Shown here: piece after piece, positions 32,028 through 47,521 of the stretch
How positions within the stretch are numbered: the stretch's first letter is position 1
Layout of the letters: each line of letters opens with the position of its first letter
Assembly (NCBI GenBank): GCA_902812365.1
Contig: CADDZC010000024.1
Coordinates: 1-48,190, forward strand
Source of the DNA: Acidobacteriota bacterium
GTDB lineage: Bacteria; Acidobacteriota; Terriglobia; UBA7540
DNA: 48,190 nt
Direction of reading: 5' to 3'
The notes under the pieces: model-generated
The model's database searches: none
The model's input: the letters and a program-made list of their open reading frames with translations, nothing else
Told to the model about the DNA's origin: nothing
Position numbers and translations under genes: made by a program

Positions 32028-32849
32028 TTACGCTCCTGGCCGGCCAAGGATATAAAAGCACCGTCCTCCCGTAGCGCTGGCGGGAGGCGCGAAATCAAGC
32101 ACGTCGTATCCTCGGGCGAAATAATGTTCGAAAACCCGGCGCGCCTCAAGCCTCCAGCGTCGCGCCAAGGGAAGGGCTTCGGCGCGCATCCGATCCGTGT
32201 GGGAAGGAATTTCGAACAGAAGGCGCGGTGCCGTAAGCCCGAGGCGGAGCCGGCGATTTTCAAGGAGTTGGCGGGAATTGAGCGCAGTTTCATTGGCGCG
32301 CGGCAGGCTTAGATCGACGGCGGGCGCGTGGCGGCGGCGCAGGCGGCGAGCGACAGAAGCGGAGGCAATCGGCCAATTCACCACCAAGCGGTCGCTGGCC
32401 AGCCCTTTCTCGATGGCGCTCGGGAAGCGTCCATAACAGTCGCGAACGTACTCCTCTACCCGCCCTCCGAGGCGGGTCAGGTTGAGCGCAGCATTGCGGC
32501 TTTGCAGCGGATCATATGTCCAGCCGATCGCCTCGAGGCCCCGCCGGAGGGCGATCTGGCGATGTGCCAGTTTCATCTGCCAGCCCAGGCCTCGATCGCG
32601 CCACGGTGGCTCCACCGCCATCATGTGCGACCAATGGATCAAGCGACCATGACGCTGGGCCAGAAAGGCGTACAGAAACCCTACCAAACGCGGGCCGCTG
32701 AACGCCCCCAGCACGACGCCGCCCTGCTTCTGGGTGACGGAGAGCAACTCGGCTGAAGCTCCGAGCGTTCCCCAAACGGATTGCTGGATGCGTTCGCAGC
32801 GGCGAAACTCTTCCGGGGATTTGAGAAGGCGGATTCGGGTCTGGAGCAT
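32028..32849 (-). CDS. GNAT acetyltransferase-superfamily protein (COG3375-like)
   Basis: A 273-residue GNAT-fold protein. The acyl-CoA-binding stretch is visible as VEPPWRDRGLGWQMKLAH near residues 79-96, followed by GWTYDPLQSRNAALNLTRLGG. These stretches match the GNAT gene at 42501-43253 almost block for block (WTYDP, N-A-x-x-N, R-LG, DRL), so the two are paralogues. Known relatives include a succinyl-CoA:D-amino-acid N-succinyltransferase. This copy has no racemase neighbour. The start has no clear ribosome site. Confidence 0.75.
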   Translation of the reverse strand: MLQTRIRLLKSPEEFRRCERIQQSVWGTLGASAELLSVTQKQGGVVLGAFSGPRLVGFLYAFLAQRHGRLIHWSHMMAVEPPWRDRGLGWQMKLAHRQIALRRGLEAIGWTYDPLQSRNAALNLTRLGGRVEEYVRDCYGRFPSAIEKGLASDRLVVNWPIASASVARRLRRRHAPAVDLSLPRANETALNSRQLLENRRLRLGLTAPRLLFEIPSHTDRMRAEALPLARRWRLEARRVFEHYFARGYDVLDFAPPASATGGRCFYILGRPGA

Positions 32850-35443: not shown

Positions 35444-36112
35444 ATGGAACTGAATCGACCGCGCGCGGAAACGTGCTCGGGCTTGGTGGAGATGCACGGC
35501 GGCAGTGGAGACGGCGCCGAGAGCCCGCAGGATGTGGCCGAGGTGATCGGTGCCGTAGTGGAGACGTGCCTAAAGCGATTTCGCCGGTGGCAGATACCGC
35601 CCAATTGGGCTTTCGGCGACTGGATCAAAGAGATGGCTGGTCAGGGCCACGTGGCGGCGTGGGAGGCCCTCGGACAATACGATGCCACGCGCGGGCTCGG
35701 TCCGGCAACCTTTGTGATGTGTCGGGTGATGGCACGCTGCCTCACTCGGTACCGTCAGGAGTGGGCGTTTGCCGGACGGTGTGAGGAATTATCGGCGGAG
35801 CCGGGTGATTCGGCTAAGGAGTGGGGCCGTCGTTATCCCCATCAAAACGAAGCTCGTATCTGGGAGCACCAGGACCTGGTCCGGGCGGTCAATCAGCTCA
35901 AAGAGCTGGATCGCTGGATTTTGAAGCAATTGTTCTGGGAAGAGCGGCGCGAAGAAGACGTCGCCGAGGAACTGGGAGTGAGCCAGCCGGCCGTCAGCAA
36001 ACGCAAGCGCACAATTTTGGGCAAGCTGCGCCGATTATTGACCAGTTCGGAGAGCGAGTCTGCCGCCTGCTGGACACCCAAGGCGCGGGCGGAAGCCTCC
36101 CCGTCGACGTAA
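35444..36112 (+). CDS. Sigma-70-like RNA polymerase factor
   Basis: A 222-residue protein with the two-part layout of a small sigma factor. Residues 55-108 resemble region 2 (AWEALGQYDATRGLGPATF, then a basic helix), and 153-197 form a region-4 helix-turn-helix (LKELDRWILKQLFW, VAEELGVSQPAVSKRKRTIL). It lacks regions 1 and 3. The N-terminal 30 residues and the tail are non-conserved-looking. GGGAGGACCC precedes the ATG at 35444. The next gene, the cysteine-ladder protein, begins 85 bases later on the same strand, so they probably form one unit. No anti-sigma factor is adjacent. It could also be a non-sigma DNA-binding regulator with a similar fold. Confidence 0.75.
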   Translation: MELNRPRAETCSGLVEMHGGSGDGAESPQDVAEVIGAVVETCLKRFRRWQIPPNWAFGDWIKEMAGQGHVAAWEALGQYDATRGLGPATFVMCRVMARCLTRYRQEWAFAGRCEELSAEPGDSAKEWGRRYPHQNEARIWEHQDLVRAVNQLKELDRWILKQLFWEERREEDVAEELGVSQPAVSKRKRTILGKLRRLLTSSESESAACWTPKARAEASPST

Positions 36113-36197
36113 AGCCGGCTTCAAGCCGGTGCCGTTCAGCACCACCCGAGAGGACCAAATTCGGATTCTTGATCCCTCGGTGCCCAAAGGAGACACC

Positions 36198-37562
36198 ATG
36201 CCGAATACACCTGAGGAAACACGACTGACGGAATTGCAGCAAACCGGGGAAGCTATCGGCAAATTAGCCAAAGACCCCGCCGCGTTTAATCGGACGGCGG
36301 AAGCGTTCCTGGCCGAGAACGTCGAGGCCTTCCAGGCCGAGCTTTCGCGGCTCGGGCTGCTGCCTTTTTGCATCCTGATCTGCCGCTGGTTCTGCAGCAA
36401 GCATTGTGTGCTGATTTGCTCGCGGCTGTGTCGCGAACCGATCAATCCGCAAGTGCTCACCATCGCCGAGATGCGCGATTTTGCCCTTGTCACTCAACAA
36501 CTTACGGCAAATGAGGGCTTGCTCAAGCAGTTTCTGGACGCCGTGGACAAGCAGGATGTGGACACGTTTAACAAGTTGCTGGCCGCGCAAAGGTGGCAGC
36601 CCTTCTGCCATCAGCTTTGCCACCTGCTCTGCTCCGTTCGCTGCCGCAGAGTTTGCAGGATTTTCTGCCCACCCGGCCCTATGATTACTGAGGTGGGGCT
36701 GATCCCAGCCTCGCAGATTGATCCGAGCGGGCGCGCCGCTGGGCCGAGCCTGCCACCCGGACCGACCTCTAGTGACAACAAGGCCGCCGGAGTCGGCGAC
36801 CACCCTTTCGGCGGATGGGTTAACATCAAAGGAGTCTTCAACATAGCCAACCCATTTCAGTATAAGGTGGAGTTTGCCACCTCCCCCGCCGGCCCCTGGA
36901 CCCCCATCCTGCAAGCCATCACCGACTACCACTGGTGCCATGGCGGGCCCTTGGTTTCCTATAGTCGGGTGCCGGACGCCAGCGGCTGGTACAACGTCGC
37001 TGATATGGACTGTGACGGGCTGGATTACCTCACGGACTGGCTCACTCCAAATGACAGAGATAAGCTTTATTATCTTAAACTTACAGTCAGAACAGCCGCC
37101 CTCGTGGAGTTCGCCAGTCCCCTCGTCCCGGTGCGCATTGATAACGGAGCGCCGCTTCCGGCGCCGCCCCTTATAGATCTTCAGCTTCAGGCACCGGATG
37201 GAACTCGCCGCAAACTGGGGTGCTGCGAGACCGTCCAGCAAGGCAAAGGAAACCTGGTCGTGATTACCCTCCAAGCCTGGGACGAGAACTTCAGCCATAT
37301 CGATGTCGAGCTGCTCGGTGGCTGCAACGCCAGCTTCCCGATTGTCGATACAGGAGGAACGGCGCTGTCCAAGACCTATAACGGCAACGTGGCGGATACA
37401 GGCTACCCCATGCCCACTGAATTCCTTTGGGACCCCTGGAAGGCCGGAATACCCCCTTGCTGCTATTTGCTGGACGTCGTCATCACCGACCGCGTCATCG
37501 CCAACAACACTTGGTCAGGAGGCCATTCGGCGCAGGGTTGGCACTCGATCACCATCGCCTAA
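36198..37562 (+). CDS. Protein with two six-cysteine C-X3-C helices, unknown function
   Basis: A 454-residue protein I do not recognise. It has no signal peptide. Residues 20-80 and about 100-160 are two copies of one unit: a helical lead-in (AEAFLAENVEAFQAEL and QFLDAVDKQDVDTFNKLL), then PFC and six cysteines exactly four residues apart: C58, 62, 66, 70, 74, 78 in copy one and C137, 141, 145, 149, 153, 157 in copy two. Residues 160-180 are a Pro/Gly linker. From 200 on come two beta-rich domains with further cysteines (DMDCDG, GCCET, GGCNAS, PCCYLL). If helical, each ladder puts six thiols on one face. Metal binding, thioether or disulfide chemistry are possible; none is shown. AAAGGAGACACC precedes the ATG, and a strong hairpin terminator lies 42 bases after the stop. 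Confidence 0.8.
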   Translation: MPNTPEETRLTELQQTGEAIGKLAKDPAAFNRTAEAFLAENVEAFQAELSRLGLLPFCILICRWFCSKHCVLICSRLCREPINPQVLTIAEMRDFALVTQQLTANEGLLKQFLDAVDKQDVDTFNKLLAAQRWQPFCHQLCHLLCSVRCRRVCRIFCPPGPMITEVGLIPASQIDPSGRAAGPSLPPGPTSSDNKAAGVGDHPFGGWVNIKGVFNIANPFQYKVEFATSPAGPWTPILQAITDYHWCHGGPLVSYSRVPDASGWYNVADMDCDGLDYLTDWLTPNDRDKLYYLKLTVRTAALVEFASPLVPVRIDNGAPLPAPPLIDLQLQAPDGTRRKLGCCETVQQGKGNLVVITLQAWDENFSHIDVELLGGCNASFPIVDTGGTALSKTYNGNVADTGYPMPTEFLWDPWKAGIPPCCYLLDVVITDRVIANNTWSGGHSAQGWHSITIA

Positions 37563-41410: not shown

Positions 41411-42520
41411 CTAGCGGCCAAACCGTTCCTTTCGCACCGTCAGTTTTTCAATCCGTTCCAGGTTGGGCGTGTAGCCGAGGCCCGGCGTTGGAGGCACGCG
41501 GATCGTGCCCCGGGGCGTGACCGTCACCTCGGGATCAATGATATCCTGCGTCCAATACCGGCGGCTGGCGGAGACGTCTCCGGGGAGCGTGAAGCCCGGC
41601 AGCGTGGAGAGCGCGATGTTATGGGCGCGTCCGACACCCGATTCGAGCATCCCGCCGCACCAGACGGGGATCTTCCGGGCGCGGCAGACGTCGTGGACCT
41701 CCCGCGCGGACGTCATCCCGCCGACGCGGCCCAGCTTGATGTTGATGATCTGGCAGGCGCCCGCCTCGATCGCCTTGCGGGCGTCGTCGGCATTGTGGAT
41801 CGATTCGTCGAGACAGACGGGCGTGGAGATCTCACGTTGCAACCGGGCATGATCCAGAATGTCGTTCCAGTGGAGCGGCTGTTCGATCATGAGCAGTCCG
41901 AAGCGGTCAAAGGTTTTCAGATGTGGCAGGTCCGCCAGCGTGTAAGCGGAATTGGCATCGACGGAAAGCGCGATGCGCGGGAATCGGGCGCGAATCTGCT
42001 CAAGCGGTTCCACATCCCACCCGGGCTTGATCTTCACCTTGATGCGCTGGTAGCCCGCCGCCAGCTCGCGCTCAATCTGATCCAGCAGTTCGGGAATCGA
42101 CTCTTGAATGCCGATCGAGACGCCGCATGGAATCTCCTCGAGAGTGCCGCCGATCAGCCGGCTGAGCGGCCACCCGCGTTGTTGCGCCTCCACGTCCCAC
42201 AGCGCATTCTCGAGGGCCGCCTTCGCCATCTCGTGGCCGCGAATCGGGCGGAAGCGCGCGGCCAGCCGGCTCGCCGACTCCCAGGCCTGCTGCAGGCTCC
42301 AGGGAATCAGAAAATCCCGCAGAACGTGCCACGCGGTTTCGGGAGTTTCATGGTTGTAAAGTGGAGCTTCCCCGCAGGTTACTTCCCCCCAGCCCGTCCG
42401 ATCGCCGACCGCCACCCGCACCAGCACAATGCGGCGCGTGGTGGTACGGCCGAAGCTGGTTTCGAAGAAGCGCACCAGCGGAAGGCGAATCTCGCGCAGC
42501 TCAACGCTTTCGATCGTCAT
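41411..42520 (-). CDS. N-succinylamino-acid racemase / o-succinylbenzoate synthase family enzyme
   Basis: Enolase-superfamily enzyme of 369 residues. The active site is complete: K161 and K163 in [11 protein letters not shown], metal ligands D188 (DAN), E213 (EQP) and D238 (DES), and K262 in NIKLGRVGG, with [13 protein letters not shown] near the end. The spacing matches Amycolatopsis racemase (K163, D189, E214, D239, K263). Members are either menaquinone-pathway OSBS or N-succinylamino-acid racemase. No other men gene is in the window, while the GNAT gene upstream overlaps it by 20 bases, so I favour the racemase. I started at the ATG at 42520, where the protein begins [15 protein letters not shown]; the frame is open 15 codons more. 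Confidence 0.88.
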
Positions 42521-43253
42521 CGGCGGGATCCAACAGATAGTGTGAGAAGCGGTCTCCACGCACAAAGCCGGTTACGATCAGCTTTCGGTTGAACCATTTC
42601 TGGAACTGGGAACGTACCGCCGCCTGAAGGGCGCGGGCCTTCTTCGGCCGTTGCTCGGCCAGGCTCTCGAAATCGTTCGGGATGGCCACTTCCGCGGCCG
42701 GCCGGAGCTGCGGGGAGCGGGCCGGCTTTCCCTCCAGGGCTCGCTTGACGCGTTTCGATGTCAGCCACCACTCGCAAATCAAGCGGTCGGTCGGTAAACC
42801 CTGTTGCAAGCGGCTCGCCACCAGGCCGTAATAGTCCGGCACGTAGCGGCGGGCGATGGCTCCTAAGCGAACGATATTAAAAAAAGCGTTCTTCGCCCGC
42901 ATCGGATCGTAAGTCCATTCCACCAGCCGCACTCCGGCCCGCAGCGCTTCGTCCCGCTGGGCGAGCTTGAGGGCGCGGCCGAGGCCGCGATCCCGGTGCC
43001 CGGCGGCCACGCCCAGCGACAGCGAATGGAGGTAGCGCCGGCCATCGCGCCACGCCGGCATGGCCGCGACGAAACCGACCAACTGCCCGCGGTCGGTGAA
43101 GGCGCCGAGCGCGTGGCCGCCGATCCGGGTCAAGTTCACAAACAGGCGCAGCGGGTAGACTTCGGCGTCGGTATAGCCCCAGATCTCCTTCTGCAGTTCC
43201 ACGCACGCGGCCAGTTCCTCGCGCCGCTGGCAAGGGCGGATCGAATAGGTCAT
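42501..43253 (-). CDS. GNAT acyltransferase (COG3375-like), candidate N-succinyltransferase
   Basis: A 250-residue GNAT-superfamily protein. The CoA-binding stretch is [18 protein letters not shown] near residues 83-100, and the conserved [19 protein letters not shown] follows. It is a paralogue of the protein at 32028-32849. The stop overlaps the racemase-like gene by 20 bases and its start overlaps the mazG stop in ATGA, so three genes are coupled. In Geobacillus a GNAT enzyme next to the N-succinylamino-acid racemase transfers succinyl from succinyl-CoA to D-amino acids; the same role is likely here but not proven. The desuccinylase that completes that pathway is not in the window. Confidence 0.82.
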
Positions 43254-44317: not shown

Positions 44318-44554
44318 GTGATCTATGTCCTAGCCGGTTGGATTCTGGCAGCGTTTGCCGCGGCCCCGGTGGTCGGCAAGCGGGTGCGGCGCCGGATCGC
44401 GAAGGAGCTGGCGATTCTGCAGGCCGAGCGCCGGCTCGCCGCGGCTAAAACCGAGACCGCGCCGCGCCCCCCAACGACGGGGTGGCTTCCGGTGCCCGGC
44501 CGAGGCGGGGCGGCGCGCCCCGGCATCGGCTCGCCGCCCTCCGGGGTTCGCTGA
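44318..44554 (+). CDS. Small membrane protein, unknown function
   Basis: A 78-codon frame starting at GTG (44318) with AAGGAG ten bases upstream. One membrane helix spans about 3-19 (YVLAGWILAAFAAAPVV), then a basic, coiled-looking stretch (RVRRRIAKELAILQAERRL), and a Pro/Gly-rich tail. The tail may be an artefact of high GC. It converges on the deoC gene. Confidence 0.4.
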   Translation: MIYVLAGWILAAFAAAPVVGKRVRRRIAKELAILQAERRLAAAKTETAPRPPTTGWLPVPGRGGAARPGIGSPPSGVR

Positions 44555-44588
44555 CGGCCCTTTCGCCGAGGCCGCCGGGCGGAAGCGC

Positions 44589-45677
44589 TCAGTATCGCGG
44601 GCCGGCCCCCGGAATTTCGGCCGCCGCCTCCGCCGCCCCGGCCAACGACTCCTGGACAATCTTCACGCCGGCGCTCGCGCCGATGCGCGTCGCCCCCGCC
44701 GACACCATCTTCTTGGCATCTTCATAACTGCGGATTCCGCCCGCCGCCTTCACTCCCATCGCCGAGCCCGCCACCCGCCGCATCAATTCAACGTCGTGCA
44801 CCGTGGCGCCGCCCGGACCGAATCCGGTGGAAGTCTTCACAAAATCTGCCCCGGCGCGGCGGGCCAGACAGCACGCCCTCACTTTCTCCTCGTCCGTCAG
44901 CAGGGCGCATTCCAGGATCACTTTGGTGAGGGCACCGCCGCGGTGGCAGGCGTCCGCCACGGCGCGGATGTCCTGCTCCACGCGCTCGTCCCGCCGGCTC
45001 TTGAGGGCGCCGATGTGGATCACCATATCGACTTCCTGAGCGCCGAGTTTCACCGCTTGCTCCGCCTCGAACGCCTTCGCCGTCGTCAGCGTGGCCCCGA
45101 GCGGGAATCCCGCTACCGTGCCCACCTTCACCCCGCTTCCCCGCAGCGCGGCGGCGGCCAGAGCCACCCATGCCGGATTCACGCAAACGCTGGCAAAGCC
45201 GTACTTTCGCGCCTCTTCGCACAGCCGGGCAATTTCAGCCGCGGAAGCCTCCGGCTTGAGCAAAGTGTGGTCGATCAACGGGGCGATTTCGCCGGGAAGG
45301 CCGGAAAGGTCGCCCCCGCCGCTCAGCCGCGAGGCTCCGGCCGATACGAGGCGGCGGGCGCGTTCCGGGCACCGCGCCACACAGCGTTCATCGCAGCCGG
45401 CGCAGCGCGTCTCGTCGCCGGCGGGCGGGCGCGGTTCGCGGGGAGCGGAGTCCGCGAGCTGATCGAGCACCTGCTGGGCAATCTGCTCGATCAGCTCGCG
45501 CCGGCGATCGTCGCCGCCGGCCTCCGCCGGATTCTGGTCCGAGAAGAGGATTCGAACTCCCCGCTCCTGCGCCGCTTCTCGGGCAGCGGCCGTGACCACG
45601 GCGTCGGGAGGCACGCGCAGCTCGCCGTCGGGCGATACGGCGCGCACGTCTTCGGCTATCACAATTCGCCTCGCCAT
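44589..45677 (-). CDS. deoC: Deoxyribose-phosphate aldolase with N-terminal microcompartment-type extension
   Basis: Cleaves 2-deoxyribose 5-phosphate to acetaldehyde and glyceraldehyde 3-phosphate. The aldolase domain is at about 130-362 with D217, the Schiff-base lysine K281 (FVKTSTGF) and K310 (GVKAAGG). The 362-residue length exceeds the usual 220-260 by about 125. Residues 4-46 ([27 protein letters not shown]) resemble the N-terminus of EutQ. Residues 59-76 ([18 protein letters not shown]) look like the amphipathic encapsulation peptides of microcompartment enzymes. C92, C95, C99 and C103 form a tight cluster. DeoC of this kind occurs in sugar-degrading microcompartment loci, but no shell protein is in the window. 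A cupin gene ends nine bases upstream on the same strand. Confidence 0.9.
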
Positions 45678-45686
45678 CGCCGCCCC

Positions 45687-45965
45687 TTAGTCGGAACTCT
45701 TCTCCGCGATCAGGTATTCACATCCCTCAGGACCCATGCGGGCCGAATGGACCGTGTTCGCCGGAACGTCGAAGCGCTCGCCGGCTCTCACCCGCCGCGA
45801 TCGGCCTTCGGCGGTCACGATCATCTCGCCCGCCAAAACGACGTGCGCGGTGGTGACGGCGTGAGTATGCTCCGGATACACGGTGTTCGGGCCGTCACGC
45901 CACACATAGAGGCGATCAAAGCCTTCGGCCCGCCATGGCCGCTCGTACGATTCGCGGTCCCGCAT
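45687..45965 (-). CDS. Small cupin-domain protein
   Basis: A 92-residue single-cupin protein. The metal motif reads YPEHTHAVTTAHVVLAGEM (H33, H35 and probably H41), and the second cupin strand pair is DVPANTVHSARM. It probably binds a metal and a small ligand; no reaction is known. It lies nine bases upstream of deoC on the same strand, so the two are probably co-expressed. A GTG three bases earlier (45968) is an alternative start. Confidence 0.82.
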   Translation of the reverse strand: MRDRESYERPWRAEGFDRLYVWRDGPNTVYPEHTHAVTTAHVVLAGEMIVTAEGRSRRVRAGERFDVPANTVHSARMGPEGCEYLIAEKSSD

Positions 45966-45976
45966 CACGGGCCATT

Positions 45977-47521
<1,545 letters not shown>

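What the first reader, a model, noticed from the sequence alone, without database searches (positions are those of the whole stretch)
36198..37562. Two six-cysteine ladders (C-X3-C repeated five times) in one cytosolic protein
Twelve cysteines occur as two sets of six, each exactly four residues apart (58-78 and 137-157), with alike helical lead-ins and a PFC start, so the unit was duplicated. On a helix all six thiols would share one face. Known CXXXC-lined helical bundles (Csp copper-storage proteins) bind many Cu(I); SCIFF-type RiPP precursors also carry six cysteines, but no radical-SAM gene is adjacent. I know of no described family with this layout plus beta-rich domains.
Basis: partly seen in the sequence, partly recalled or inferred. 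Interest (0 to 1): 0.8.

Follow-up and report, generated by a model that had tools for sequence, protein, structure and literature searches.

The report
Six-rung paired-cysteine helix ladder protein
A soil bacterium carries an undescribed protein in which two helices each carry six evenly spaced cysteines; across its relatives the cysteines are mostly lost as matched pairs, which indicates that the two helices face each other like a six-rung ladder, either bonded by disulfides or clasping metal ions.

Summary
The 454-aa protein has C58-78 and C137-157, six cysteines each, exactly four apart. It matches nothing above cut-off in Pfam, NCBIfam, PHROGs or PADLOC, and no solved structure. I found 17 relatives (27 ladder modules in all) in Acidobacteriota and Actinomycetota soil bacteria. 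The spacing is kept in all 27. Nine relatives carry two modules (four ladders).

New result: lost cysteines are coupled. When ladder A loses position i, ladder B almost always loses position 7-i (15 paired against 2 single; no other pairing of the 720 possible fits better). On a tree this is at least six independent paired losses. So the ladders most likely form an antiparallel helix pair with six Cys-Cys rungs, inside a fused pseudo-dimer of a duplicated four-helix unit. The C-terminal half looks Ig-like, and its relatives occur in proteins with signal peptides; this protein has none.

Whether the rungs are disulfides (preferred) or two-coordinate metal sites is open. Csp membership is not supported. 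The gene is a patchily distributed orphan without conserved neighbours. I call it a new domain family: an extended variant of CX3C-paired helical hairpins.

The parts
36198..37562 (+). CDS of the ladder protein, 454 aa plus stop
   Evidence: five full-length relatives; dN/dS
36187..36192 (+). Shine-Dalgarno-like AAGGAG, 5 nt before the ATG; fixes the start and leaves no signal peptide
   Evidence: sequence
36210..36437 (+). Unit 1 (residues 5-80): three short helices and ladder helix A
   Evidence: AF2 model; duplication
36369..36431 (+). Ladder A, C58-C78, six Cys at i+4
36450..36677 (+). Unit 2 (residues 85-160), homologous to unit 1
36606..36668 (+). Ladder B, C137-C157, six Cys at i+4; coupled to ladder A antiparallel (i with 7-i)
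36678..36812 (+). Linker (residues 161-205), Pro/Gly-rich, low-confidence in the model
36813..37559 (+). C-terminal half (residues 206-454), beta-sandwich/Ig-like; invariant C342-C343, C376, C421-C422
   Evidence: relatives in proteins with signal peptides
35444..36112 (+). Upstream sigma-70 family factor gene; neighbour, not conserved near relatives

Best explanation
The N-terminal 160 residues are a fused pseudo-dimer of a duplicated four-helix unit. Its two long helices (ladders A and B) lie antiparallel, and their twelve cysteines meet as six rungs: C58-C157, C62-C153, C66-C149, C70-C145, C74-C141, C78-C137. Most likely the rungs are disulfides in the working state, forming an unusually long disulfide-locked helical hairpin. 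This gives a rigid, degradation-resistant base for the Ig-like C-terminal domains, which probably bind a surface or polymer outside the cell after release by a non-Sec route or lysis. Shown by computation: the sequence, the duplication, helicity in a confident model, and the antiparallel pairing by coupled loss. Inferred: disulfide rather than metal, extracellular site, binding role.
For: Cysteine losses in 27 modules are coupled i with 7-i: 15 paired against 2 single, versus 1 against 30 for parallel pairing; it ties for best of 720 pairings. On a tree built without the ladder cysteines there are at least 6 independent paired changes and 2 single ones. Four of the six rungs are seen lost as pairs, often one rung at a time, so each rung behaves as an independent unit, as expected of a disulfide. 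The confident helical model has both ladders as continuous helices. A crude helix-pair model can satisfy all six rungs at about 7.6 A interaxial distance with a right-handed twist (3.7 residues/turn, pitch about 100 A). The C-terminal half scores as Ig/adhesin-like (Z up to 8), and its relatives sit in proteins with apparent signal peptides (L010, L011, read by eye). Twin CX3C proteins pair C1-C4 and C2-C3 as disulfides in the same nested way (PMC3759932).
Against: No member shows a Sec or Tat signal peptide (by eye), and the bacterial cytosol is reducing. Paired loss would also fit two-coordinate Cu(I), Ag(I) or Hg(II) sites. Six rungs need an underwound or strongly supercoiled hairpin; straight alpha-helices at a realistic distance satisfy only the central rungs. 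Two modules keep one unpaired cysteine (L020 m1 a4/b3, L055 m2 a5/b2). The Ig-like matches are fold-level and within the range the tool calls common.
Confidence: 0.5

Rival explanations
1. Cytosolic soft-metal store or chaperone: the six cross-helix thiol pairs each hold Cu(I) (or Zn, Hg, Ag) in a file between the helices, working like a Csp3 copper-storage protein without being related to it.
For: No signal peptide seen in any of the members examined; Csp3 also lacks one, and most of its Cu(I) sites have two thiolates (PMC5171941). Digonal pairs would also be lost two by two.
Against: No PF03860 match here or in the own genome and 100 relatives. [quoted passage not shown] a Csp3 subgroup lacks three Cys and a His motif together (PMC10155185). 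No gene of any kind is conserved nearby. No conserved His or Met ligand across modules. Ig-like C-terminal half.
Confidence: 0.32
2. Thiol-redox switch or sensor: reduced and oxidised ladders alter the C-terminal domains or a partner, perhaps the sigma factor encoded next door.
For: A sigma-70 family gene ends 85 nt upstream on the same strand.
Against: No homologue of the sigma gene was found beside the compared relatives. A switch needs one or two pairs, not six.
Confidence: 0.08
3. Cysteine-rich peptide precursor (SCIFF-like RiPP or halocin C8-like bacteriocin).
For: Sub-threshold NCBIfam matches: halocin_C8_dom E 0.06 and up in six of ten modules, Cxxx_AC3_0185 E 0.025 in two.
Against: Scores are far below the curated cut-off (13-14 vs 24 bits). 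The ladders lie in the middle of a folded 454-700 aa protein; no maturation or export gene recurs among the loci.
Confidence: 0.04

Closest known systems
Twin CX3C small Tim proteins and alpha-hairpinins
   Same: Helix-loop-helix with CX3C motifs whose cysteines pair outermost-with-outermost (C1-C4, C2-C3) (PMC3759932, PMC11591084).
   Different: Six consecutive rungs instead of two (six Cys in some alpha-hairpinins); the helices belong to a duplicated eight-helix domain of about 160 aa, not a small hairpin; bacterial; no sequence relation found.
Csp copper-storage proteins (Csp1/Csp3)
   Same: Many Cys on helices at CXXXC spacing; Csp3 has no signal peptide (PMC5171941).
   Different: No sequence match. 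Csp3s are about 108-136 aa four-helix bundles (PMC10155185) with thiols bridging Cu; here two helices carry all twelve Cys, the Cys are lost in cross-helix pairs, and an Ig-like half follows.
Halocin C8-like domain (TIGR04449)
   Same: Cys-rich stretch; sub-threshold match at ladder B.
   Different: E 0.06-0.16, under the cut-off; no bacteriocin context.
Ig-like bacterial surface domains (RbmA, GbpA domain, SiiE, PrgB)
   Same: Fold-level similarity of residues about 315-454.
   Different: Best Z 8.1 over 105 residues at 3.5 A and 7% identity; no sequence relation.

Membership tests
Csp copper-storage family (PF03860) | Match to the DUF326/Csp profile | tested here: not met
   No Pfam match for the protein at E 1; 0 of 101 genomes including the own one match PF03860, control B. 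subtilis rings
Csp copper-storage family (PF03860) | Binds many Cu(I) through core thiolates | not testable with these tools
   Needs ICP-MS or Cu(I) titration
Csp copper-storage family (PF03860) | Cys distributed over the helices of one four-helix bundle | tested here: not met
   All 12 ladder Cys lie on two of the eight predicted helices
Twin CX3C / alpha-hairpinin disulfide hairpins | Antiparallel helices with nested Cys pairing | tested here: met
   Coupled loss i with 7-i, 15 paired vs 2 single; evolutionary evidence only, no coordinates were available
Twin CX3C / alpha-hairpinin disulfide hairpins | Two CX3C motifs (four Cys) in a small protein | tested here: not met
   Two six-Cys ladders in a 454-aa protein
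Twin CX3C / alpha-hairpinin disulfide hairpins | Pairs are disulfides | not testable with these tools
   Needs mass spectrometry
SCIFF / rSAM Cys-rich RiPP | Short precursor beside a radical-SAM maturase | tested here: not met
   454-aa protein; no gene is conserved beside the loci; window neighbours are sigma factor and BON-domain protein
Halocin C8-like domain TIGR04449 | Score above the curated cut-off of 24 bits | tested here: not met
   13-14 bits
Ig-like fold (C-terminal half) | Beta-sandwich with clear structural match | tested here: inconclusive
   Best Z 8.1 in VIA-align, Foldseek best E 0.018; the full-length model has mean pLDDT only 69

The most novel reading that the evidence does not exclude
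A natural six-rung cysteine ladder: an antiparallel helix pair, wound right-handed, zipped by six consecutive disulfides (or a file of digonal metal ions), found in single- and double-module forms across two soil phyla in a leaderless protein that carries an extracellular-type Ig-like half. Either chemistry, at this length between just two helices, would be new to me.
Probability: 0.6. Interest if true: 0.75.

Novelty: new variant of a known kind. Interest (0 to 1): 0.62.

Why it matters
If true, it is the longest run of paired cysteines between two helices that I know of, and evolution has already shown which cysteine faces which. It gives a testable question (disulfides or metal?) with a six-fold internal control, and a natural scaffold for very rigid or metal-lined helices. 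It also poses a cell-biology question: how does a protein without a signal peptide, with an Ig-like half, reach an oxidising place, if it does?

Tried and rejected
Pfam, NCBIfam, PHROGs, PADLOC and PDB sequence searches of the protein gave nothing above cut-off; a profile of the modules matched only designed helical bundles in the PDB at E 3e-4 to 0.1 over 28-50 residues of lead-in helix, which I read as generic helix similarity. D27-like_C (PF13225) appeared at E 0.005-0.09 in some members, below its cut-off; I read this as chance Cys spacing. Phage, plasmid and viral collections: no relative. No shared neighbour gene. Fold search of the helical domain: best Z 5.0, Foldseek best E 0.25; a missing match does not prove a new fold. 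Membrane hairpin considered: ladder helices have Kyte-Doolittle maxima 0.3-1.7 and usually several charges, not convincing. Zn or Fe-S sites built from two adjacent rungs were judged unlikely because single rungs are lost on their own, leaving five. A Csp control for coupled loss could not be made because no Csp sequence was found in the genomes searched. Literature searches for a described cysteine or disulfide ladder between helices of this kind found none in the held library.

Full report
OBSERVATION. The gene at 36198-37562 (+) has a good Shine-Dalgarno site and an ATG start. Its 454-aa product has six cysteines at 58-78 and six at 137-157, each exactly four residues apart. A shuffle test shows this is not chance (85 of 100,000 shuffles have even a four-rung ladder). 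Relatives share the reading frame with dN/dS about 0.07-0.22.

FAMILY. A scan of genome contigs gave five full-length relatives at 44-67% identity: an acidobacterial gp4 MAG, Acidicapsa dinghuensis, a Humibacillus MAG, Solirubrobacter soli and an Actinomycetes MAG. Whole-genome searches added twelve more genes. In all there are 18 genes, 9 with one module and 9 with two; Solirubrobacter soli has one of each. The family is sparse: 0 of 60 near relatives and a few percent or less of genomes in each group sampled. Tree branches mix Acidobacteriota and the Solirubrobacterales sample, so transfer between phyla is likely. No neighbouring gene recurs among the loci compared, and the sampled neighbours are unrelated housekeeping or signalling genes. 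No phage, plasmid or viral record in the collections holds it.

DUPLICATION AND FOLD. Units 1 and 2 (residues about 5-80 and 85-160) are homologous: profile E 3e-20, and 2e-12 without the ladders. An AlphaFold2 model of residues 1-164 has mean pLDDT 90.7 and pTM 0.79, with two copies of (three short helices + one 23-residue ladder helix): helices 55-77 and 134-156 are the ladders. In the less certain full-length model the ladder helices are broken in the middle. No solved structure matches the helical domain well (best Z 5.0).

THE PAIRING. Across 27 modules the four-residue spacing never changes, but single positions are sometimes not cysteine. Actinobacterial single-module proteins lack A6 and B1. 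First modules of several two-module proteins have Arg at A3 and Tyr/Phe at B4. G182 and G1200 lack A5 and B2, and G1200 lacks A1 and B6 as well. Under the rule 'i pairs with 7-i' there are 15 paired and 2 single losses; under parallel pairing 1 paired and 30 single. The rule ties for best of all 720 pairings; the tie only swaps partners between the two rungs never seen lost as pairs. Counting on a tree built with the ladder cysteines masked gives at least six independent paired changes (a1b6 one, a3b4 two, a5b2 one, a6b1 two) and two single changes. The exceptions are L020 module 1 (A4 Ala, B3 Cys) and L055 module 2 (B2 Ala, A5 Cys). The unit is thus best read as a fused pseudo-dimer with its ladder helices antiparallel about a two-fold axis. 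The data do not tell a within-chain hairpin from a swapped dimer.

CHEMISTRY. Losing one rung at a time, both sides together, fits a disulfide best; it also fits a two-coordinate metal. [quoted passage not shown] A crude geometric model shows that two straight canonical helices at a realistic distance bring only the central rungs together; all six need a close (about 7.6 A), right-handed, slightly underwound pair. That model ignores side-chain clashes and is a plausibility check only.

C-TERMINAL HALF AND LOCATION. Residues 206-454 are predicted beta-sandwich. The structural matches are Ig-like, adhesin-like and carbohydrate-binding domains at Z up to 8, which is within the range the tool calls common. 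Profile hits show related domains in other proteins: in L011 after an apparent signal peptide and a propeller-like region, and in L010 after an apparent signal peptide. This hints at an extracellular role. Against it, no ladder protein examined shows a signal peptide (judged by eye). The location is therefore open.

VERDICT. The Csp and RiPP analogies are not supported as membership. What is new is the evolutionary evidence of pairing, which largely fixes the architecture. The choice between disulfide and metal needs the bench.

Noticed in passing
L007, L008, L020, L029, L033, L034, L053, L054, L055: Two-module relatives (four ladders, about 650-710 aa); in all nine, module 1 has lost one or more rungs while module 2 keeps all twelve cysteines in eight.
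   Followed up: yes
window 37221-37226, 37323-37325, 37458-37463 (residues 342-343, 376, 421-422): Five further cysteines, including two CC pairs, are invariant in the C-terminal half of the six full-length proteins aligned first; an odd number.
   Followed up: no
L009, L010, L011, L022: Relatives of the C-terminal domain occur in otherwise unrelated proteins (a propeller-like protein with signal peptide, a protein with a sub-threshold GEVED match, others); this domain has no Pfam name.
   Followed up: partly
window 35444-36112: Sigma-70 family factor directly upstream on the same strand, not conserved beside the relatives.
   Followed up: partly
window 32031-32849 (-) and 42504-43253 (-): Two GNAT acetyltransferase-like genes lie 10 kb apart on the same strand; the second sits beside an enolase-superfamily (MR_MLE) gene and MazG.
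   Followed up: no
window 44355-45977 (+): 541-aa open frame without any Pfam match at E 0.001.
   Followed up: no
L054 (G1665) in the module tree: A module from the Solirubrobacterales sample groups inside Acidobacteriota modules (starred branch), which suggests transfer between phyla.
   Followed up: partly
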